DNA of 64,000 bases from Hirsutella rhossiliensis (lineage: Eukaryota; Ascomycota; Sordariomycetes; Hypocreales; Ophiocordycipitaceae), in NCBI RefSeq assembly GCF_020360975.1, contig NW_025408677.1, forward strand, positions 2,232,001 through 2,296,000, read 5' to 3'. The number at the start of each line of letters is the position of its first letter. The stretch's first letter is position 1. Position numbers and translations under genes: made by a program. Positions 39,587 through 63,796 of the stretch are shown here, in pieces. The notes below the pieces were generated by a model. It ran no database searches. It was not told where the DNA came from and worked only from the letters and a program-made list of their open reading frames with translations.

Positions 39587-40110
39587 GCACACTGCCACCT
39601 TCCACTTAATGTAGTATCATTGTTCCTCGGTCGAGTTCGTTTATTGTTGGGTTGGAGTTGAAGCCGGGCATTGGGGGGTCACATTTACTGCGCACGCATT
39701 GGCAGGCTTGGGGAGGCGTCTGGTACATGGAGTTTGAGCATGCTGGATATGGTTCCCATGGTGCATCAAAAGGCGGTTGGTGGATTCTGTTTCTCTTGAC
39801 TGCTATGCCTCGGGTTGAATCGAGTACCTAATATAAGTAGCAGCGTCTTTAATACTAAGTCTCTAGCTATTAAAGGTTGTTGCTTAGAGTATTATTGTTC
39901 GCCCGAGACCAGATCTATGAAGTTAATAGCATATACATTACTCTGCTTTTGCTAGCGCTGCCTCGTGGCATTTACTATTAGTAATTATATCGTAGGCTAC
40001 GACTAACTGTTCGACTAGCTTACTCGACCAGCGGCTTAACTAACTGCCTAGCTGTCTGCCTACTTAACTGCTCGACCGGCTACTTATCTGTCTGCTAGCT
40101 CTGCCTACCG
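39587..40110. other. 3' flank of the WOR1-like gene up to the repeat boundary
   Basis: Contains the 3' untranslated region, then a composition change beginning near 39,830. Between 39,950 and 40,110 there is an imperfect repetition of short words (CTGCCT, ACTGCTCGACC, GGCTAC, CTGTCTGC). TpG is still common here, and becomes rare immediately after. Confidence 0.6.
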
Positions 40111-43100
40111 TGCCGTTAGCTAAATAGAGTATTTATACCTCTCTATTTTTTTAGAAGTTTAATAGATCCTTAATATAGCCCTTTTATTAAGTATTATTAA
40201 CGTTTTTAAAATAAGTATTACTATTTATATAGATAAAATCTTTATTTATATAAATAATTTACTTTTTTTATATATACTTTACTTATTTAGGCCCTACTAC
40301 TTAATTTAGCTATACTAATATAGTAAAGGAGGGAGCTATACTAAGTATAGCGTAAAGCCTTACTAAGTAAGAAATCTACTTTTCTTACTTATATTATAAA
40401 GTAAAGCTATTTATAATAAACTTATAATTTATCTTTATTATTATTAATTTATACTAAGGGACCTATTAAAGGTATCTAAGAAAGCTATTAATTCTTAGTA
40501 GCTAAAAATTATAGCTTATTTCGCTTAAGTAAAAACTAGCCGCTTACCTTATTTCCTTTTTAAGTTTATATTTAACCTAGTACTTAATAACTAATAAGGT
40601 AGATTATCTTACTATATAGCGTAGTATTTTACTATATCCTTAAACTTTATCTTAGACTAATAATACCTACCTTTCTAGTAGCGGACGCGAGCTAGTTAAG
40701 GACCGGGCTAAGTATATTAGTAGTCCTCTTAAAGGTCCTCCTTCTTAGCTAAGCTAAAAGAGCTAGTTACTATTACTTAGGCTCGCTAATAGATTTCCTT
40801 AAGGGAGTATATCTATTATAAGGTAGGTAAAGGGATATACTATAGGTACCTTTTATTATATTATAATAATAAGCTATATAGGATCTAACTATATACCGCG
40901 CTTACTACTACTAAATACGCGTTTATATATATAGCTTACTTTAATAAGGACGAGGGTATATACTTAAAGCACGCGTAGTATATAGCTAAGGATTAGTAGA
41001 GTAATTAACCGCGTAATTATTTAATTATCGGTCCTATATATAGCTTTAAGGGTCTATAAGGAACGGTGTTTTCCTATTATAAATAAAGTAGCTATAATAT
41101 ACTCTCCCGATTATATAAGCTAGTAAGTAGTATATTAATTATAGATAAAATCCTATTATATAAAGCAAAAATCGCTTATTATTTTATATATTATTATGCA
41201 TTAAACGGGTTGCCGGTTATCGTATAATTAGGAATTAAAGGAATAGAGCTAGCTTAAAATACTAGCTAAGACCTTTTAAGAATACCGGTACGACTAACCT
41301 CCTTTAAATATAAATATTATTATAGAGTAGACCTAAGAGGGCATAGGCTATAGTCGCGCTACTACCCCCCTCTACTACGTACGGCGTATTATACGTACGC
41401 GATAAAAGGTAACGAATTAACTAAGCTGCCTAGCTTATTAATTAACTATACTTATTAACTATCTAGGCAACGCCTAGACTCTTATAAATATTAGTAGAAC
41501 TAAGATACTTCTAGATATACTTAAGGTATTATAGAATTCCTTAGTCTTAGGGCTATATAGTAGCCTAAATCTAGTCTTAAAAGGTTCTTCCGTTTAGCTA
41601 TAATTATCTATATAAGATAGTATATCCGCTAGTAAATAGAGATAGAATTATTAACTTTAATACCTCTTTTATATACTAATATACTACTAATAAATTCTAT
41701 TAAAAATCCTACCTTATACTCCTTCTTCCCTTTTATTATATAGTCTTATATAAATCCTTAATTTCCTAAAATTCTACTTTTACTTATATACCTTAAAAGG
41801 GTTTTAGGTTATTAATATAAGTCTTAAAGATTTTTTTACTCTATACCTCTTTATCTTTACTAGAGTTATATAACTAGCCGCTTTTACTTTAAAAGAGAAA
41901 AATAAATATTTAAATTAACTATAATTAAAGAAGATATCTAATTAAATAATCTAGGCTTTTATAAAGCCTTTAAGTATACTTAGGGGGAAGGTAGATAGGA
42001 AGCGCTAAGGGTCTTATCTTTTTAACGGGCTAATATTTATAAGGGTATAATCTTACTTATTAAACTTCTTCCTAGAGAATTTCTAACCTAAGATACTAAT
42101 AGAAAGAGCGTAATAATAATAAGTAAAGGCTCTTATCTTAAGTATATAAGTAAGTAAATAAACTATTAATAGAACTTTTCTCTTTTACTATAATCCCTTC
42201 CCTTTATAATATTTATTCCTCCCTTTACTTATAAGCTACTTATTTAGCTCTTTCCTATCTTTACTTATATACTTCCTTCTTTAAATAATTATCTACTACC
42301 CTTTATATATACTCTTAAGTATTCGCGCTAATTATTCTTAAAGGCGTTAAAGAAATAAAGTAGTTAGCGTTTTTACTAGTCTATAACTTTAAGTATAGCT
42401 AGATTAAATAAGCTATAAAGTCTTATAAACTAATTATTATTATATTACTAGTAGTCTTATATAAATATATAGAGTTATAGTTATTAATATCTTAGTAGTA
42501 GTTTTAATATATTCTTAGGTTTTTAACTCTTTTAACTTAAGTAAGTTTAAAGCTTAGTATAAACCTTATAAAGACTATAGCTAAAGAGGCTATTACTATA
42601 CTTTATTTTTAAGGAGTAATAAAGCGCGCTATAAGTATTACTAAAGTCTTTAGCCTTAAGGTAATTAACTAAGCGCTTAGTAATTATAAGAGCGCTACTA
42701 AGAGGTATAGGCTAATAAAGCACTTAGGTACGTAGTACTAATATATTAGTAGGGTATCGGTAGGGAATTATGCCTACCTTGCTCGTATATTATAGACTAC
42801 TCGCTACTCTGACTAAAGAGGAGAAATCCTTCTTCTCGTAAGCTTTAGTCTTATAATAAGGAGAATATAATATATATAGCGTAGTACCTCTAGCTATCTT
42901 TACTACCTAACTAATTATACCGTAATATATATTCCCTTATAATTTCTAAAGCTTCCTTTTTTAGTTACCTAATAGAGATAGCTACTTAAAGAAGACTATA
43001 TAACGCTCCTATAGCGCGATATAGTAGTTAACTAGTTAAGGCCTCTTCGTTACGTATATCGAGTATCTACTTAAGAGATAAAGAATAGGAAGATATATCC

Positions 43101-43150
43101 TTAGAATAGACCCTTACTATAGATAGCGTTATAACTATATCGAAGATATC
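40111..43150. other. Unassigned RIP-mutated sequence, perhaps older repeat
   Basis: About 3 kb with the same dinucleotide damage. I could not match either strand to a retroelement or transposon domain. It should contain the 5' LTR and leader of element C, but no copy of its 3' LTR is visible in the window for comparison. A third, older element is equally possible. Confidence 0.4.
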
Positions 43151-45700
43151 GCTACCTATAGGCGTAAGATAACTATCTTATAAGGAAAAGCTTATAGCCC
43201 TATAAGCGCGCGTTAAGGAGCTAGAAGAGACGAAACGCTTATAAGATCGCGTTATATAATTAAAGGAGGAAATTACTAAACGCGCTAGTGCTATCGCTAT
43301 TTATTCGGGAAAGCGTTAACAGTCCTACTCCCCTAAATTAAACGGTAGTCGCGGTAGCGAGGTTAAAATTAAAAATATCGCTTAATTATCTTAACCTACT
43401 AATATATAGAAACGTCTAAACTAGACTTACGATCTAGAGGACGCCTTTAGGGCAGCGCCTAAACGTTTTTATCGCGATAAAATAAAGATCCTTTACGCGG
43501 TAGATTATATATATAGCGACTATAAAGCGAGATAGCGCCGATACCTTAAAGAATAGACGCCGATTAACTAGACTAAATATAGTATAGATTAGGTATACTT
43601 TAAAGAATAGATACTTATCTTAATTAAGGATACTATAAATAAGGAGATACTATTAGCGACGTAATTAAAGGAGGCTCGCTAACGAGAAGGCTAGTCCCCC
43701 TTAGAGTTTAGCTTATACCTTAACTCCTTAAAGAGGCATTTCGAACGCCTATCGGAAAAAGCGCGTGCTCTTACGTTTTTTACTAAGCTAGAGCTATAAC
43801 TTTAAGACTAAATTAACCTTTATTCGATACCTATTTATACCTATTAATAGGAAGAGCTTATATAAGTCGCTTAACGATATTAAGATACTACTACTAATAA
43901 GAGGCGATATACTAATACTACTTCTACCCTTAAAGGAACCGGGAATAGAAATAGTACTATACCCTAAGGTAGTACGTATAAGGGGAGGAATTAAAGAGGC
44001 CGATAAGCTAAGCTAAATCGTTAAGGAAATACTATTAATTTAACCGATAACTAGTAAGCTAGCGATATACCTACTAAGGGCTAAACTAAGGGATATTATC
44101 GAGGAAGAGGATCTTTTACTTAATTAGGAATTATATATTTTTAATATAATAAGCTAGGATACCTATCTATAGAATATACTAATTCTTTAAAGGTAGAAAC
44201 CCTAGTAAAGACTCTTAAACTTAATACTATAAAATAAAGAAAAGGTAAGATATTAAGGTAAACGCCTCTCCCTTAATAAACTTAATACTTATAGGATAGT
44301 TACTTAAAACTCCTATAATAATATTAAGGCGAAACCCTACTAAAGTCCCTATATACTTAGATACTTATAGTACCGTTAACCTTATAAATATATACTTTAC
44401 TTAATAGTAGGGATTATTATAAGTAGCGCTATTATACCCTAAGTTATTAGGGCTTAATAATAATAAGGTAAGGGAATATAAAGTATAGTTAGTGCTGCTT
44501 TAAATAATAGATATAAGGGGCACCGAAAAGATAATTACTTATTTTTATATTAATACCGATAAGTTAATACTAAATAATTAGGTATTAATCCTTTTATTAG
44601 TTACTACCTTAAAGGATAAATATATCTATATTATCTTATAGAAACGATAGTAGTAGTTTAAGTATTAACTAGGTAGTAAAACCCTATAAAATCCCTATAG
44701 ATTCCTTTAAGAATATAGAAATAAGGTAAGGGTATATATAATAGCGCTTAATCTTAAGCTAATCCCGCTACTAAATAAAGATAAGGATAAAGGGATTTTA
44801 TAGGAAGAATAGGCCGAAATCCTACTAACTCTTTATTAGTTTAAAGATACCTTCTTAGCTAATAAATCCGACTTATTACTAGCTAGAAAAGGAATAGATT
44901 ACTTAATTAATTTAATCCTTAATATAGAACCCCCTTATAGACCGATTTACCCTCTATCGTAAAAGGAACTCTAAGTATTACGCGATTAGATCTAAGACGC
45001 GATAAAAAGGAAAATAATCTAAGAGTTAAAGAGCCTAGCTAGGGCGCTTATCCTTTTCGTTCTAAAAAAGGATAGCACCTTATAGCTATATATAGACTAC
45101 TAAGGACTTAACTAAGTTATATAAAAGAATCGGTACCCTTTACCCCTTATTTTAGAGATTATTAACCGTTATTAAGGAGCTAAGTATTTTTCTAAGATTA
45201 ATATATAGAATATATATTAACGTATTTAAATTTAAGAAGGAGATAAATAAAAGACCGCTTTTTAAACGTATTATAGATATTTTGAATACCTAGTAATACC
45301 CTTTAAACTTACTAATATACTAGCTACGTTTTAAAGCTATATCTATTAGGCGCTTAAGGGGCTTATAGATATAATCTATATAGTCTACCTTAACGATATC
45401 TTTATATACTCTAAAACGAGAGAAGAATATACTAAATACTTAGAATAAGTAATAGAAAGGTTAAGGGCTATAGAGCTCTATATAAAACTATTAAAGTATA
45501 TCTTTTATTAATAGTTAATCGAGTTCCTTAGGTTTATTTTATCTATTAATAGGGTATCGATAGACCCTTAATAGGTAGAGGTAATAGCCTAATAGCCTAA
45601 ACCTATAACCTACTATAATATTTAGGTTTTCCTTAGGTTTTATAATTTTTACCAACGATTTATATATAAGTACTTAAGAGTTATAGCGCCCTTAACTATA
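43150..45700 (+). mobile_element. Element C, 5' part: Ty3/Gypsy gag, protease and RT (RIP-inactivated)
   Basis: Reading through stops: a coiled-coil-like stretch near 43,200-43,300 (KELEETKRL-type), a gag region, and a zinc knuckle at 44136-44177 in which the three Cys and the His are all Tyr. A protease follows with the active-site Asp codon at 44360 and a STVNLIN context. The RT has YPLPLILEII, FEYLVIPF and the catalytic box YLND at 45386-45397. Gag is in one frame and pol in the -1 frame. The sequence stops at FYQRFI..YLRVIAPLT, the connection between RT and RNase H, where element A begins. The other half lies at 53,549-56,100. Confidence 0.85.
45696..45700 (+). repeat. Target-site duplication of element A, left copy (CTATA)
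   Basis: CTATA directly before the left LTR at 45,701. The same five bases follow the right LTR at 53,544-53,548. Five bases is the usual Ty3/Gypsy duplication. Confidence 0.8.
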
Positions 45701-46164
45701 TATTACGACCACGGTCTAGCGAACCGCGGGGACTAGTATATATTACGAGGACACGTAACGTAGGGAGCAAGGAATATTAAACGGACTAACGGGCCAATTA
45801 AGTTTAGAGCGATAGGTTACTCTAGCGCTCTAACGCTCTACGGCTAGATCGTAGGATCGCTCTAGCGCCCTAGCGCTCCTAGGCGATAGGATTACTAAGT
45901 GCTCTCGGCGATCTAGGAAAGCTCTTAAGATATATAAGGAAGGAACGGAATACTCCTTTAGATAGATAGCTCGATAGCTTTTAACACCGATCTTTATTAC
46001 GATTTTATCTCTAATTCCGATTACCTAATTATAGTCTACGGTCTACGACCTCCGACTTATTACTAATATAATATACTTTTTATTGCTTAGACTACGCCCT
46101 ATTATATCTACTAATATAAACCCCTCGATAGGTTTATCCCTTAGGAATAACACCGGTCGTTATA
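45701..46164 (+). repeat. Left LTR of element A, 464 bp
   Basis: Starts TATTACGACCACGG and ends ACCGGTCGTTATA. It is CpG-rich compared with the internal region (GCTCTAGCGCCCTAGCGCTC segment). It matches the other three LTR copies along its full length, with differences that are nearly all C/T or G/A. Confidence 0.93.
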
Positions 46165-51800: not shown

Positions 51801-52340
51801 GGTTACTCGATAAGGACTATAAGTAGAACGAGCAATACTATAAGTAGATTAGCTATAAAAATTATATAAAGAAATATAATAAGAACTTTAATTCGTTAGA
51901 GAATAAATATTTACTTACTATAATTAGAAAAGATTATAGGGACTAATCTTTCGAGAGGGGGATATAGTCTACCTTATACGACGAAATATTAAAATAAAAC
52001 GACTAAGCAATAAATTAGATTTTAAGAAACTTAGACTATTTAAGGTTAAGAAAACTATTTTAAAAGTTAACTACGAACTTTCGCTACTAATAATAATATA
52101 GATATACCTAATATTTTATATCTTATTATTAGAACTAGCGCTATGAAACGCTAAACTATAGAAAAAAATCGAAGTCGACGACAATTAAGAATATAAAGTA
52201 GAATAAATACTAGATATAAGAAAATAAGGTTAGTAATAAGAATACCTTATTAAGTAGAAGGGATACGGACTAGAGGAAAATACCTAGGAACTACTTAAGC
52301 ACTTAACTTACTATAGTTCTTTACTCCGATAGTTCTACTA
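48832..52340 (+). pseudogene. Element A pol: protease, RT, RNase H, integrase, chromodomain
   Basis: One frame throughout. Protease: Asp codon at 48832 with a DxxA-type context, and a DLIL-x-LL strand near 49,050. RT: YRRLNDIIIKDR, FIALDLKGAYN, and the catalytic box YLDN at 50056-50067. RNase H begins near 50,500 (LKTDILDFTL). Integrase is at about 51,100-51,900 with its first Asp kept, its second changed to Asn, and the Glu kept. A chromodomain at 52,189-52,320 (VE-ILDIRK, YLIK-KGYGLEENTWELLKHL) marks this as a chromovirus, whose integrase is thought to be steered to heterochromatin by this domain. Many in-frame stops are Gln or Trp codons altered by RIP. Confidence 0.87.
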
Positions 52341-53077
52341 AGCGAACCCTTACTCGGAAATATAGGGTTACTAAGAATAGCATCCTAGTCTAATACGTCT
52401 AAGGCACTAAACGATTAAACCTCGCTAATAGTAATAGTTTCCTTATTTAATAAACAAACCGATTCGTCTTAAGAAGAACGCGTTATACTATCTTCTTTAT
52501 TAATAGCTTATATACCCCGCTAAAATAACTTACTACCTCGGTCCTTTAAGAAACGCTTCTATTTCCTAATCCGAGCTAGGCGAGCTATCGCTTCCTCTAA
52601 CGCTTCTTTTACTTTCTATTCGTCCGAATTAATCTTTTACTATTAATTTATAATATAATAAACTAAAAAAAGAAGGAATATTAGTAAAAAAGAACGATAG
52701 GGAAGGAAAGGGATAAAACGAACGGGCGGACGCTATATTACACCTATTATAAGAACGGCCTATAGAGGTATATTCGGAACACCGATTAGAATACTCGCCG
52801 ACTTTATAAGTTAGGCCTAACCGAAAATAATAGGAGTAAGGCATAATTTTAATACCGTAGATCTCGGTCTAAGATACTAGCTCTAATCGTTAACGCGATT
52901 TATCGGAATTATAAGAACGGGATTTTTAAATATAACTAGATATACTATTAGTAGTATATCCCGAAAGGATAAAGGAATAAGGAATAATATACTTACGTAT
53001 AACGCGATAAGGGTATATTTATATACGGCGGCTAAGGTAGTAGGTCTTAAGGGTAAGACTAAAAAGAGGGGAGGCAT
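52295..53077 (-). pseudogene. Possible antisense accessory gene of element A (Cys motif plus coiled coil)
   Basis: On the minus strand between the chromodomain and the right LTR. Codons at 52808, 52781, 52772 and 52751 (first bases) form a C-x8-C-x2-C-x6-C pattern in which three of the four have become Tyr. Downstream is an intron-like 3' site, TTTACTAATATTCCTTCTTT then TTTTAG, with its exon starting at 52662. From there a charged helical segment is readable (VKEALEEAIARLARIRK, KRFLKDRGSKLF) to a stop near 52,295. An ATG-started 64-codon frame also lies at 53077-52883. The donor was not found, so a plain frameshift between the two parts is possible. The arrangement is repeated in element B. 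I recall similar Cys-plus-coiled-coil ORFs near fungal LTR elements but cannot name a family. Confidence 0.48.
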
Positions 53078-53079
53078 CC
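53061..53079 (+). promoter_or_regulatory. Polypurine tract of element A
   Basis: AAAAAGAGGGGAGGCATCC lies directly against the right LTR, where plus-strand DNA synthesis would be primed. The CAT inside it is kept in both copies although CpA is nearly gone elsewhere. Confidence 0.8.
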
Positions 53080-53543
53080 TATTACGACTATAGTCTAGTA
53101 AACCGCGGGGACTAGTATATATTACGAGGATACGTAACGTAGGGAGCAAGGAATATTAGATAGACCGACGGGCTAATTAAGTTTAGAGCGACGGGTTACT
53201 CTAGCGCTCTAACGCTCTATAGCTAGATCGTAGGATCGCTCTAGCGCCCTAGCGCTCCTAGGCGACGGGATTACTAAGTACTCTCGGCGATCTAAGAAAG
53301 CTCTCGAGATATATAAGGAAGGAACGGAATACTCCTTTAGATAGATAGCTCGATAGCTTTTAATACCGATCTTTATTACGATTCTATCTTTAATTCCGAT
53401 TACCTAGTTATAGTCTACGGTCTACGACCTCCGACTTATTACTAACGTAATATACTTTTTATTACTTAGACCACGCCCTATTATATCTACTAATATAAAC
53501 CCCTTGATAGGTTTATCCCTTAGGAATAACACCGGTCGTTATA
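53080..53543 (+). repeat. Right LTR of element A, 464 bp
   Basis: Starts TATTACGACTATAG and ends ACCGGTCGTTATA, followed by CTATA. Compared with the left LTR it differs only by C/T and G/A changes in what I compared. Confidence 0.93.
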
Positions 53544-56414
53544 CTATATTATTAAAAGGGAGTAAGAATAGGAAGAAGCTAGGGAGTATAGAGCTAAACC
53601 TTACTAAAAGGGTAGCGTTTTAAGCTCTTAAGGATACTTTTTAAGGAGCCTTACTCCTCCGATATTATAATTTAGAAAGATATATTTATATTAAAATAAA
53701 TATATTATAATTCGCGATAGTAAGGATTATCTCTTAACTTAATAATAAAGGACGTTACTATCTTATTATATTTTAGTTAAGGAAGTTTACTAGAGCTAAA
53801 CTTAATTATAGTACTTTAGACTAAAAACTATTTACTATCGTTAAGTTATTTAAATACTAGCGATATTACGTTAAAGGGGCAGCGTATAAAGTAAAGGTAT
53901 TATTAGATTACTATAACCTTTAAATATTTATATACTAGACCTCCTTAAATAGGAGGTAAGTAAGATAGTATATATATTTAGTACTATTTAACTTTATAAT
54001 TAAGTATTATATAAGTAAATTAAACCTAGCGAACGCGCTATTAAGAATGCCTAGATATAAGGGTAAGAAGCCCCTATCTATAAAACTATTACTAGAGCTA
54101 TAAGTAAAGCTAGCTACTATTAATACTATATCTATATAGAGAAATAATAAGGCGTTTTTATAGGTAAAGAGATACTTAACCTTAAGTTAATATAAGCGTA
54201 GTAAAGTGCCTTTATATAAGGAAAATATATAAGCTTATCTATAGTAAAACTATAATAATTTAGGCGTAAGACTTAAACGATTAGCCGATTAAGCTAAAGA
54301 GAGAGCTAGTTATAAATAGCTACTCTTAAGGAAGACCGCTAAAAAAGCGGCCTACTATATAAAGGTTTATATAGTAGAAGTTCTAAAACTATTACTAGAG
54401 TTACTAAAACGTACTTAGTCGGTTAATATAGCGATTAATAGGCTAAATAAGACTAAAGACTTCTTAAAAGGGAAGGGTTTTTAGTTAGTACGCTTAGATA
54501 GACTACTACTATAAAAGGGTTATATTATAGTACCTTTAGAGGTAGCCTTATAGTAAGAGCTAATATAGCTCTTTTATAACGATCTATTAATAGGATACTT
54601 TAGCTCTTAACGTACTAGCGAACTACTAGTAAGGAACTTCTACTAGGATAGAATAATAAAAGATATAAATAAATACGTTTAGTTATACTTAGTATATTAA
54701 GGTATAGTATCTAAGAGGCATCGCCCTTATAGTACTATATAATTATTACTATATCTTATACGACTATAGGAAGAATTATTAATAGACTTTACTATAGGTC
54801 TACCTAAAGTATAGTATAATAAATAAGACGTTAATACGATCTTAGTAATTATAGACCGATATACTAAGTATTGCTTTTTCTTTCTTATCTCTAAGATAAT
54901 AATAGCCCTAAAGCTAGTAGAATTATTCTATTACTAAGTTAAATTAGTATATAGACCTTTAAAAGGTATTATCTTAGATAGAGGGTCCTTATTTATAAGT
55001 AAGTTTTAGTTAAATCTTTATTTTATCTTATAAGTAAAACGTAAGCTATTAATAGTATTTTACTTATAAACTAATAGGTAAATAAAATAAATAAACTAAG
55101 CTATATAGTACTACTTAAGATACTTTACTAACTTAAAATAAACTAACTAAGCGTTACTCTTATATATTACTTAATTTATATATAATAATATAAAGAATGC
55201 GATAACTAAGTTATTACCTAACGAAGCGTTAATAGGTTACTAACTAAACTTTTATATTAATACTAAGGATAATATTATTTAAAGGGGGGTACCTAAAGTA
55301 AGAGTAAGAGTTACTAGGCTATAAGAGCTATAAAAGAGGCTTAAAGAATACTAAGGAAAGGCTATTAAATCGTAAGTAAAATACTATAATTTAAAGCACT
55401 AACCGCTTATACTAAAAGTAAGAGACCTTATAGTATTATCGATAAAGAACTTATACCTTAAGGACGAAAAAAGAAAACTCTTACCTAAGTATATTAGACC
55501 GTTTTAGGTCCTATAAGCTATTAGAAAGTAAGTATATTATCTTATACTCCCTAAGAAGTACTTATGCCTTTATAACGTTTTCTATATTAGTCTCTTAGAG
55601 CTATAGAAAGAGCGTAAAGGTACTTATAAAGATAGCGAAACCCTATTAATATTAGACTTAAAGGACGATAAAAGCGAATAAGAAGTTTAAGAGATTAAAG
55701 ACTAAAAGAGATCTAAAGGTAATACCTTTTTCCTTATTAAATAAAAAGGATAGCTAGCTAAGTATAACTAATAGGTTAAGGCCGAAGATATAGTAAATAG
55801 CTAAGACTTTATTAAAGAATATACTACTCGCTTAACCGGAAAAAAGAGGTATAAGACTAAGTAAGGTAGGGAAACTTACTAGTATAAGGAGACGCTATTA
55901 AATTAGTAACGAATCCCTACTAAATTACTACTAACTTATTAACGTATTAGTACGCCTAAATATCCTATAACTATATATAAAATAGTAAAATAGGAGAATA
56001 AGGGAAAACTATATATACTACCTATTAAATATTATTAAGGAAAATAAAACAAAACTATAACTTTATTAAGGCCTTAATAATAAAGGAGAGAAAGATAGTT
56101 ATAACTAAATAAAAGAAAGATAAGACCTATCTATTACTTCTAACTACCCCTCTTTTTTACTAGCGTAGCGGGGACTAACTAAGGCGCCCCCTCCGCTATA
56201 CTAAATACCTTTAGAAATACTAGAACTACCTTATCCTCTACTCCTTCCTTATCCTTTATATCGAGACCTATCTTTATTAGTATAGCACTTACCTCGGCCT
56301 TAGTAAATAGTAAGGTATACTACTAAGAAGTATAGCCTATATTACTATCGATAAAGCGGAGTTTTAACTAGGATTCCTAGGCCTAGTACTTTAGGCTTAT
56401 ATAGGCGATATCGA
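53544..56414 (+). mobile_element. Element C, 3' part: RNase H, integrase, chromodomain (RIP-inactivated)
   Basis: After the CTATA duplication, the codon phase of element C resumes exactly: ...VIAPLT at 45,680-45,697 continues at 53,549. RNase H follows (VAF-ALKDTF, then IISQ). An integrase at about 54,540-55,230 has EELLIDFTIGLPKV (first Asp), GIILDRGSLF (second Asp kept) and a changed Glu (Lys codon). A chromodomain-like stretch ends the frame at about 55,675-55,850 (KGNTFFLIK-KG, YN--VKAEDIV). The last about 260 bases (56,150-56,414) are more GC-rich and may be the start of the 3' flank or LTR, cut by element B. Confidence 0.83.
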
Positions 56415-56419
56415 ATAAG

Positions 56420-56883
56420 TATTACGACCACGGTCTAGCGAACCGCGGGGACTAGTATATATTACGAGGATATATAACGTAGGGAGCAAGGAATATTAAA
56501 CGGACCGACGGGCTAATTAAGTTTAGAGCGATAGGTTACTCTAGCGCTCTAACGCTCTACGGCTAGATCGTAGGATCGCTCTAGCGCCCTAGCGCTCTTA
56601 GGCGACGGGATTACTAAGTGCTCTCGGCGATCTAAGAAAGCTCTCGAGATATATAAAGAAGGAACGGAATACTCCTTTAGATAGATAGCTTAATAGCTTT
56701 TAATATAGATCTTTATTATAATTCTATCTTTAATTTTAATTACTTAGTTATAGTCTACGGTCTACGACCTCTAACTTATTACTAACGTAATATACTTATT
56801 ATTGCTTAGACTACGCCCTATTATATCTACTAATATAAACCCCTTAATAGGTTTATCCCTTAGGAATAATACCGGTTATTATA
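56420..56883 (+). repeat. Left LTR of element B, 464 bp
   Basis: Starts TATTACGACCACGG, like the left LTR of A, and ends ACCGGTTATTATA. The same length as both LTRs of A. Confidence 0.93.
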
Positions 56884-62500: not shown

Positions 62501-63059
62501 ATAACCTAGAAGTATTTAAGGTTACTCGATAAGGACTATAAGCGGAACGAGCGATACTATAAGTAGATTAGCTATAAAAATTATATAAAGAAATATAATA
62601 AGAACTTTAATTCGTTAGAGAACGAATATCTACTTACTATAATCGGAAAAGATTATAGGGACTAATCTTTTAAGAGGGGGATATAGTGTACCTTATATAA
62701 CGAAATATTAAAATAAAACGACTAAGCAATAAATTAGATTTTAAGAAACTTAGACCGTTTAAGGTTAAAAAAACCATTTTAAAAGTTAACTACGAACTTT
62801 CGCTATTAATAATAATATAGATATACCTAATATTTTATATCTTATTATTAGAACTAGCGCTATAAAACGCTAAACTATAGAAAAAAATCAAAGTTAATAA
62901 CGATTAAGAATATAAAGTAAAATAAATACTAGATATAAGAAAATAAGGTTAGTAATAAGAATACCTTATTAAGTAAAAGGGATATAGACTAAAGGAAAAT
63001 ACCTAGGAACTACTTAAGTACTTAACCTACTATAGTTCTCTACTCCGATAGTTCTACTA
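59551..63059 (+). pseudogene. Element B pol: protease, RT, RNase H, integrase, chromodomain
   Basis: Same order and frame as the A copy. The RT box is again YLDN (60775-60786), and the integrase second Asp is again Asn, followed by Lys where A has Arg. The chromodomain lies at 62,908-63,040. The damage pattern differs from A at many single sites, which shows that many mutations arose separately in each copy. Confidence 0.85.
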
Positions 63060-63796
63060 GGCGAACCCTTACTTAGAAATATAAGGTTACTAAGAATAGC
63101 ATCCTAGTCTAATACGTCTAAGGCACTAAACGATTAAACCTCGCTAATAGCAATAGTTTCCTTATTTAATAAATAAACTAATTCGTCTCGAGAAGAACGC
63201 GTTATACTATCTTCTTTATTAATAGCTTATATACCCCGCTAAAATAACTTACTACCTCGGTCCTTTAGGAAACGCTTTTATTTCCTAATCCGAGCTAAGC
63301 GAGCTATCGCTTCCTCTAACGCTTCTTTTACTTTCCGTTCGTCTAAATTAATCTTTTACTATTAATTTATAATATAACGAACTAGAAAAAGAAGGAATAT
63401 TAGTAAAAAAGAACGATAGGGAAGGAAAGGGATAAAATAAATAGGCGGACGCTATATTGCACTTATTATAAGAACGGCCTATAGAGGTATATTTAGAATA
63501 CCGATTAAAACGCTCGCCGACTTTATAAGTTAGGCCTAACCGAAAATAACGGGAGCAAGGTATAATTTCGATACCGTAGATCTCGGTCTAGGATACTAGC
63601 TCTAATCGTTAACGCGATTTATCGGAATTACGAGAACGGGATTTTTAAATACGACTAAATATACTATTAGTAGCATATCCCGAAAGGATAAAGGAATAAG
63701 GAACGATATACTTACGTACGACGCGATAAGGGTATATTTATATACGGCGGCTAAGGTAGTAGGTCTTAAGGGCAAGACTAAAAGGAGGGGAGGCAT
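63014..63796 (-). pseudogene. Possible antisense accessory gene of element B
   Basis: The counterpart of the minus-strand frame in A. The Cys-pattern codons at 63527, 63500, 63491 and 63470 are now all Tyr. The 3' splice-like site (TTTACTAATATTCC, then TTTTCTAG) is present and so is the helical segment. One stop of copy A, in the codon after DE, is CGG (Arg) here, so that stop arose by mutation. The ATG-started 64-codon frame at 63796-63602 also matches A with a few conservative changes. Confidence 0.46.

What the first reader, a model, noticed from the sequence alone, without database searches (positions are those of the whole stretch)
52295..53077. Candidate antisense accessory gene in a chromovirus, conserved in two RIP-damaged copies
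Seen: on the minus strand between chromodomain and 3' LTR of both A and B there is a C-x8-C-x2-C-x6-C pattern (Cys turned to Tyr), a textbook-like branch site plus acceptor, and a charged helical frame whose only stops can be explained by RIP of CAA, CAG or CGG. At least one stop in A is a sense codon (CGG) in B. Established: Ty3/Gypsy elements normally have only gag-pol. Inference: this family carried an opposite-strand, spliced gene for a small zinc-binding coiled-coil protein, perhaps a regulator of the element.
Basis: partly seen in the sequence, partly recalled or inferred. Interest (0 to 1): 0.75.

Follow-up and report, generated by a model that had tools for sequence, protein, structure and literature searches.

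The report
Retrotransposon's antisense zinc-cluster regulator gene cassette
A fungal retrotransposon carries, backwards between its own genes and its end repeat, a gene for a small zinc-cluster, coiled-coil protein that looks like a DNA-binding switch, and this gene together with the element's promoter comes in several very different versions on nearly the same element end.

Summary
Window 52295-52943 (minus) and 63014-63662 (copy B) are RIP-killed copies of a real antisense gene of a Ty3/gypsy chromovirus. RIP-explainable stops alone do not show it. What does: 27 copies at 97-100% identity to an un-RIPed backbone all have the gene beside integrase/chromodomain; two un-RIPed versions have open minus-strand frames, dN/dS about 0.14; intact homologues exist, one named Metarhizium acridum. 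The protein has six cysteines in Zn2Cys6-like spacing, then a long coil; Foldseek's 26 PDB matches are almost all Zn2Cys6 proteins, each weak.

Beyond the finding: four gene versions, 43-57% identical in the cysteine cluster, share an integrase end with hardly a transversion, and each has its own U3. Three of four U3 types hold 10-bp-arm palindromes. Best mechanism: a self-encoded DNA-binding regulator matched to its own U3 and exchanged with it. That step is inferred.

Antisense genes in fungal gypsy elements are known (brtn of Boty, cited in PMC7264820); the zinc-cluster/U3 cassette was not found in eight searches aimed at it. New variant of a known kind.

The parts
45701..46164 (+). 5' LTR of copy A
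   Evidence: 464 bp, ends in common with 3' LTR, 5-bp CTATA repeat outside
53080..53543 (+). 3' LTR of copy A; U3 about 53085-53335 (version-specific), R-U5 about 53340-53543 (shared by the versions); the U3/R border is estimated
52192..52335 (+). chromodomain at the end of pol (RIPed)
   Evidence: PF00385, residues 98-145 of window:51901-52380:+
52295..52943 (-). antisense accessory gene, version 1, RIP-damaged (outer start codon ATA here, ATG in 14 of 43 copies; terminal codon TAA at 52297-52295 in 42 of 43). The outer start rests on version 2 and on homologues; three stops between it and the inner ATG at 52844 are fixed in all 43 copies
52724..52943 (-). exon 1 with six-Cys cluster (Cys codons begin at 52838, 52829, 52808, 52781, 52772, 52751)
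   Evidence: each site Cys or Tyr in 43 of 43 copies
52663..52723 (-). intron (61 nt; acceptor firm, donor inferred from reading phase)
   Evidence: TAG acceptor 43 of 43, branch CTAAY 42 of 43, donor GT 28 of 43; 4 of 5 distinct indel sites lie here; homologue P0004 lacks the matching stretch that P0003 reads through
52295..52662 (-). exon 2, coiled coil and C-terminal tail; ends tail-to-tail with pol
63014..63662 (-). same gene, version 1, in copy B (L006)
56420..56883 (+). 5' LTR of copy B (its 3' LTR runs off the window from 63799); end taken from A's length

Best explanation
The stretch is a RIP-inactivated copy of an antisense accessory gene of a Ty3/gypsy chromovirus. SHOWN: on the minus strand between chromodomain and 3' LTR the family carries a gene (two exons here, by inference from sequence; intronless open frames in the un-RIPed versions) for a protein with a six-Cys Zn2Cys6-like cluster followed by a long predicted coil; it evolves as protein; and it occurs in four distinct versions, each with its own U3, on nearly the same integrase-chromodomain end. 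INFERRED: transcribed leftwards from in or near the 3' LTR, the protein enters the nucleus, dimerises through the coil and binds repeated or palindromic sites in the U3 of its own version, setting the element's transcription (repressor more likely than activator, since each new copy adds dose). Gene and U3 move together when 3' ends recombine, so a new cassette would escape regulators made by resident copies. My probabilities: coding antisense gene 0.97; Zn-cluster DNA-binding type 0.85; acts on own U3 0.5; repressor 0.35. The confidence below is for the claim up to 'acts on own U3'.
For: Un-RIPed copies: 27 backbone copies at 97-100% identity to un-RIPed L064, then 88-89% and less (40 of 565 candidates scored); 27 of 27 have a hit of the gene within 900 bp (from the 68 hits); 12 of the 27 were fetched and seen. 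L058: 0 stops in 610 nt of the gene frame, 2-11 in the five other frames. Selection: version 3 vs 4, 158 codons, differences by codon position 46/33/87, pS 0.70, pN 0.24, dN/dS about 0.14. Homologues: 5 proteins of 550 candidates at E 9e-14 to 1e-54 from the version-2 frame; the four that reach past the cluster also have the coil region. Structure model of P0004: pLDDT 78.6, helix 39-129; 24 of 26 Foldseek matches are Zn2Cys6 regulators and the other two are chains of CBF3 kinetochore complexes. Cassette: over 24 cross-version pairs (2 sequences per version) transversions per site in 500 bp of integrase 0-0.002, R-U5 0-0.021, gene 0.167-0.333, U3 0.213-0.322. Gene version and U3 version agree in 66 of 66 testable loci of 70. 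Palindromes with 10-bp arms in U3 of versions 2, 3 and 4: 0, 2 and 0 of 300 shuffles reach that arm length. Version 2 cluster is 85-88% identical to P0004 and P0003 but 50-51% to the other versions in its own genome.
Confidence: 0.55

Rival explanations
1. Chance frame: no gene, only RIP-made AT-rich DNA that looks open when stops are excused.
For: In the RIPed copies the exon frames are not clearly better than the other frames.
Against: Open frames in un-RIPed copies, third-position excess, homologous intact proteins.
Confidence: 0.02
2. A self-encoded activator (Tat-like) rather than a repressor: the protein binds its U3 and raises sense transcription.
For: Zn2Cys6 proteins are mostly activators (recalled); palindromes lie in U3.
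Against: No direct evidence either way.
Confidence: 0.25
3. An anti-silencing or other host-directed factor; versions differ because the host pushes back, and U3 differs for the same reason independently.
For: Both gene and U3 are very divergent; Tnt1 U3 variation has been read as evasion of host control (PMC1838419, passage).
Against: dN/dS about 0.14 between versions 3 and 4 argues against rapid adaptive change of the whole protein.
Confidence: 0.15
4. The antisense RNA matters, not the protein: it forms double-stranded RNA with the sense transcript and feeds RNAi.
For: Tail-to-tail overlap with pol (about 12 nt in L064, about 85 nt in L057); proposed for plant elements (PMC7264820).
Against: Purifying selection at the protein level; six Cys kept in all four versions and in the five homologues.
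Confidence: 0.08
5. Neutral mosaicism: recombination in the 3' part brings in whatever 3' module is around; gene and U3 co-vary only by linkage.
For: Linkage is close; upstream of integrase versions 3/4 also differ from A (19-21 transversions in 242-404 bp), so the element is mosaic elsewhere too.
Against: The sequence between gene and U3 (52944-53084) is less divergent (0.022-0.169) than either side, which a single neutral block would not give, though PPT and LTR-tip function may keep it; purifying selection on the gene.
Confidence: 0.25

Closest known systems
brtn, additional antisense gene of Boty-like Ty3/gypsy elements of Botrytis cinerea (Zhao et al. 2011, Virology 417:248; paper not held; seen only as cited in passages of PMC7264820 and PMC8365987)
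   Same: Antisense gene between pol and 3' LTR of a fungal gypsy element; PMC7264820 also names Sclerotinia sclerotiorum.
   Different: I could not read the brtn paper or obtain its sequence, so homology, a zinc cluster and a U3-linked cassette are untested for it.
Antisense extra ORFs (aORF-3R) of plant Grande, RIRE2 and Retand elements (passages of PMC7264820 and PMC11963269)
   Same: Same place and orientation, in most copies, some suggested to bind DNA or sit in the nucleus; regulatory role proposed.
   Different: Other protein types (TRP28 domain in Retand); in the passages seen, no version-specific U3 pairing is described.
Additional ORF of unknown function in fungal chromoviruses (PMC2864245, one figure-legend passage)
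   Same: Extra ORF in a fungal chromodomain element.
   Different: Strand, position and protein type were not given in the passage seen.
HTLV-1 HBZ (antisense gene; passages of PMC11963269 and PMC7264820; its bZIP nature and repression of sense transcription recalled)
   Same: Works like: nuclear protein made antisense from the 3' end.
   Different: Different DNA-binding family, different virus group, no shared ancestry shown.
Tnt1 superfamily U3 modules (PMC1838419, abstract and passages)
   Same: U3 highly variable on a conserved body, read as modular evolution.
   Different: Here an antisense protein gene varies together with U3.
Ty1 copy number control, p22/p18 (PMC4599808 and PMC7055915, start of abstract in search listing)
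   Same: Works like: self-encoded limiter of a fungal retrotransposon.
   Different: p22/p18 derives from Gag and acts on Gag and particles; it is not an antisense DNA-binding-type protein.
Lambdoid phage immunity regions (recalled)
   Same: Works like: repressor gene and its operators exchanged as one cassette on a shared backbone.
   Different: Prokaryotic virus; trans-repression is untested here.

Membership tests
Ty3/gypsy chromovirus | chromodomain at the C end of pol | tested here: met
   PF00385 25.1 bits at cut-off 25.1, 62 bits in un-RIPed L064
Ty3/gypsy chromovirus | paired LTRs with target-site duplication | tested here: met
   464-bp LTRs, CTATA on both sides
Ty3/gypsy chromovirus | gypsy-type RT placed before integrase | tested here: inconclusive
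   No Pfam hit in window:50100-52060 (RIPed, one fixed frame); no un-RIPed RT piece was searched; the 348-aa un-RIPed piece of L064 gave only Chromo above cut-off
Zn(II)2Cys6 fungal cluster (PF00172) | C-x2-C-x6-C-x5-12-C-x2-C-x6-8-C (spacing recalled), in versions 1 and 2 and homologues | tested here: met
   L039, L044 and P0003-P0007 fit
Zn(II)2Cys6 fungal cluster (PF00172) | same spacing in un-RIPed versions 3 and 4 | tested here: not met
   They read x2-x7-x9-x2-x7; hence 'Zn2Cys6-like', not filed as a member
Zn(II)2Cys6 fungal cluster (PF00172) | Pfam gathering score 21 bits | tested here: not met
   Best 19.5 (P0005); L039 piece 13.5; versions 3 and 4 no match
Zn(II)2Cys6 fungal cluster (PF00172) | binuclear-cluster fold | tested here: inconclusive
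Zn(II)2Cys6 fungal cluster (PF00172) | DNA binding, zinc content | not testable with these tools
   needs protein
[quoted passage not shown]
   27 of 27 copies at 97% or more, dN/dS 0.14, position
brtn of Boty | sequence homology to BRTN | not tested
   sequence and paper not at hand
immunity-type repressor/operator cassette | regulator gene and promoter region co-vary on a shared backbone | tested here: met
   linkage is an alternative cause
immunity-type repressor/operator cassette | version-specific trans-repression | not testable with these tools
   needs reporter assays

The most novel reading that the evidence does not exclude
A eukaryotic LTR retrotransposon carries lambda-like immunity cassettes: an antisense-encoded zinc-cluster repressor and its matching palindromic operators in the U3 promoter are exchanged as one module, so that copies fall into incompatibility groups and each new burst of transposition rides on a cassette that resident copies cannot repress.
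Probability: 0.28. Interest if true: 0.92.

Novelty: new variant of a known kind. Interest (0 to 1): 0.7.

Why it matters
It turns one of the unexplained antisense retrotransposon genes into one with a predicted biochemical activity and a predicted binding region. It makes a sharp test possible (proteins of the versions against the U3s of the versions), and it offers a possible reason why one element family can amplify repeatedly in a genome that already holds hundreds of its copies. It also suggests an identity (retroelement-type Zn-cluster protein) for some proteins annotated only as hypothetical in fungal genomes.

Tried and rejected
Stop-codon argument: rejected as evidence. Protein search with the window's own exon-2 frame (0 of 347 candidates at E<=10) and with exon 1 of L039 (none) failed; only the version-2 frame found relatives. 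NCBIfam: nothing. PDB by sequence: 16 matches, mostly coiled-coil noise; one CBF3 subunit B chain at E 0.9 over the cluster. IMG/VR: 72 pattern matches, none confirmed. CGG half-site enrichment in U3: none as triplets. Version-1 U3 palindromes: none with arms of 6 or more in L039; short repeats of AGCGCTA and CCCGTCG type instead, in 30 and 25 of 31 copies read. Rapid positive selection as the cause of version differences: not supported. 'Fully identical backbone': limited, because versions 3/4 match A over about 1.1 kb (4-8 transversions) but differ further upstream (19-21 transversions in 242-404 bp); version 2 (L061) matches A over 1546 bp with 3 transversions. Extra versions: four further RIPed loci were fetched, of seven RIPed hits not beside a copy; L074 is version 3, and L071-L073 are a version-4 relative at 2.5-2.9% transversions. 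Ten paper searches ran; eight were aimed at this gene type (81 and 86 at Tnt1 and Ty1) and showed no zinc-cluster antisense gene with matched U3. The brtn paper could not be read.

Full report
1. The place. The window is G000:C11:2232001-2296000 of an unnamed 81.8-Mb genome. From 40 kb on it is AT-rich, with CpA and TpG almost gone and TpA in excess, as expected of RIP. Two copies, A (LTRs 45701-46164 and 53080-53543, CTATA on both sides) and B (from 56420), share the 7379-bp LTR spacing. The plus strand before the region ends in a chromodomain.

2. The observation. The minus-strand motif, the acceptor and the helical frame are there. Taken alone, the excused stops prove little: in 43 copies the exon-2 frame has 9 columns with majority stops, the other five frames 12, 17, 9, 15 and 5.

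3. Less damaged copies. Three own-genome searches scored 40 each of 746, 701 and 717 candidates; I read 43 copies of this version (L001-L043). RIP left different letters in different copies. L039 reads an uninterrupted 38-residue stretch with all six cysteines. At each of the six sites every one of the 43 copies has Cys or Tyr and nothing else. Twelve of the 43 copies carry indels, at five distinct sites; four sites lie in the 61-nt intron, the fifth (L022) near the inner ATG. The intron is rich in T runs, which may help indels. The outer start at 52943 rests on version 2 and on homologues that begin MSSR; in version 1 three stops between it and the inner ATG are fixed in all copies.

4. A second version. 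A search with the L039 piece (150 of 186 candidates scored) led to L044-L046: same chromodomain side, same R-U5, but a gene about 50% identical in the cluster. A search with its frame scored 150 of 338 candidates, all matching at E 2e-56 or better, so this version is numerous.

5. Homologues. The version-2 frame, X at stops, finds five proteins among 550 candidates from 5.8 billion, one named (Metarhizium acridum, hypothetical protein). They share MPCSFC, the six Cys and, in the four longer ones, the coil region. P0004 lacks the stretch that P0003 reads through at the intron position of version 2, which supports splicing. Opposite the stops of the two coil pieces the homologues most often have Gln (11 of 31 cells for version 1, 13 of 20 for version 2), with Arg and Trp also present, but Glu, Lys, Ser, Thr, Asp, Ala and Phe occur too.

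6. Un-RIPed copies. A search with P0006 showed stop-free hits; of nine fetched with flanks seven are un-RIPed copies of the same element with open minus-strand frames, and two, L061 and L062, are RIPed version 2. A backbone search scored 40 of 565 candidates: 27 have 97-100% identity, then 88-89% and less. All 27 have a hit of the antisense gene within 900 bp; 10 of 68 gene hits lie elsewhere. Twelve of the 27 were fetched: three carry version 3, nine version 4; that the other 15 are un-RIPed is inferred from identity. Several have single-base indels that break the frame, which may be assembly errors or real.

7. Selection. Versions 3 and 4 (L058, L064) differ at 46, 33 and 87 sites in codon positions 1, 2 and 3 over 158 codons; pS 0.70, pN 0.24, dN/dS about 0.14, rough because synonymous sites are near saturation. 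In L058 the gene frame has no stop in 610 nt, the other five 2-11; in L064 the same frame has 2 stops but the longest open run of the six, 195 codons. The protein is what is kept.

8. The cassette. With two sequences per version, the 24 cross-version pairs have 0-0.002 transversions per site in 500 bp of integrase and 0-0.021 in R-U5, but 0.167-0.333 in the gene and 0.213-0.322 in U3; between them, 52944-53084 shows 0.022-0.169. Gene and U3 versions agree in 66 of 66 loci that could be tested; of 70, three had no LTR in the stretch and one (L054) no U3 match, and L024 needed its own LTR told from a neighbouring un-RIPed one. Synonymous sites are near saturation between versions 3 and 4 while their integrase is almost the same, so versions are old and backbones are shared, most simply by recombination. 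Version 2 is nearer to P0003 and to Metarhizium P0004 (85-88% in the cluster) than to versions 1, 3 or 4 (50-51%) of its own genome. Limits: versions 3/4 differ from A further upstream, so the element is a mosaic, and gag was not compared.

10. The promoter. U3 of versions 2, 3 and 4 has inverted repeats with 10-bp arms (0, 2 and 0 of 300 dinucleotide shuffles reach that length); version 1, RIPed, has none. One version-2 repeat contains CGG-N6-CCG, the Ppr1-type arrangement (recalled), but such triplets are not enriched overall. Twenty windows were tested, and two gene windows also gave rare values (a 9-bp arm in version 4, 1 of 300; an 8-bp arm in version 1, 12 of 300), so single values need care.

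11. Mechanism. Shown: antisense protein gene, cluster plus coil, versions tied to U3. Inferred: a nuclear dimer that binds its own U3 and sets transcription, most likely down. That would make U3/gene cassettes behave like repressor/operator pairs and explain why versions persist.

12. Known and new. [quoted passage not shown] cited in passages of PMC7264820 and PMC8365987; original not read). A fungal chromovirus survey marks an additional ORF of unknown function (PMC2864245, figure-legend passage). U3 modules are known in Tnt1 (PMC1838419, abstract and passages). Self-encoded copy-number control is known in Ty1 (search listing). The combination here was not found in eight searches aimed at it; subscription papers are mostly absent from that library.

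Noticed in passing
window 53544-56419 and 40001-45700: Other CpA/TpG-depleted sequence flanks and separates copies A and B; a 111-nt piece at 45224-45334 is 68-71% like pol of A and B.
   Followed up: no
L001-L040, window-equivalent 52295-53077: RIP is strongly strand-biased: plus-strand TG is almost gone in every copy (0-8), while CA is kept from 2 to 56.
   Followed up: partly
L066-L070: Un-RIPed version-4 copies are 99-100% identical in aligned bases but carry scattered one-base indels, which may be assembly errors.
   Followed up: partly
L064, start of LTR: The version-4 LTR start carries a tandem duplication of about 21 bp that includes the LTR tip (seen output).
   Followed up: no
L071-L073: RIPed relatives of version 4 differ from it by 2.5-2.9% transversions in the gene and from A by 1.7-3.3% in the backbone, so older sublineages exist.
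   Followed up: partly
L024, L057: Un-RIPed copies or LTRs lie right beside RIPed copies of the same family.
   Followed up: no
L057 and L064, end of pol: The C end of pol after the chromodomain differs between versions, so the cassette boundary falls at the pol end.
   Followed up: no
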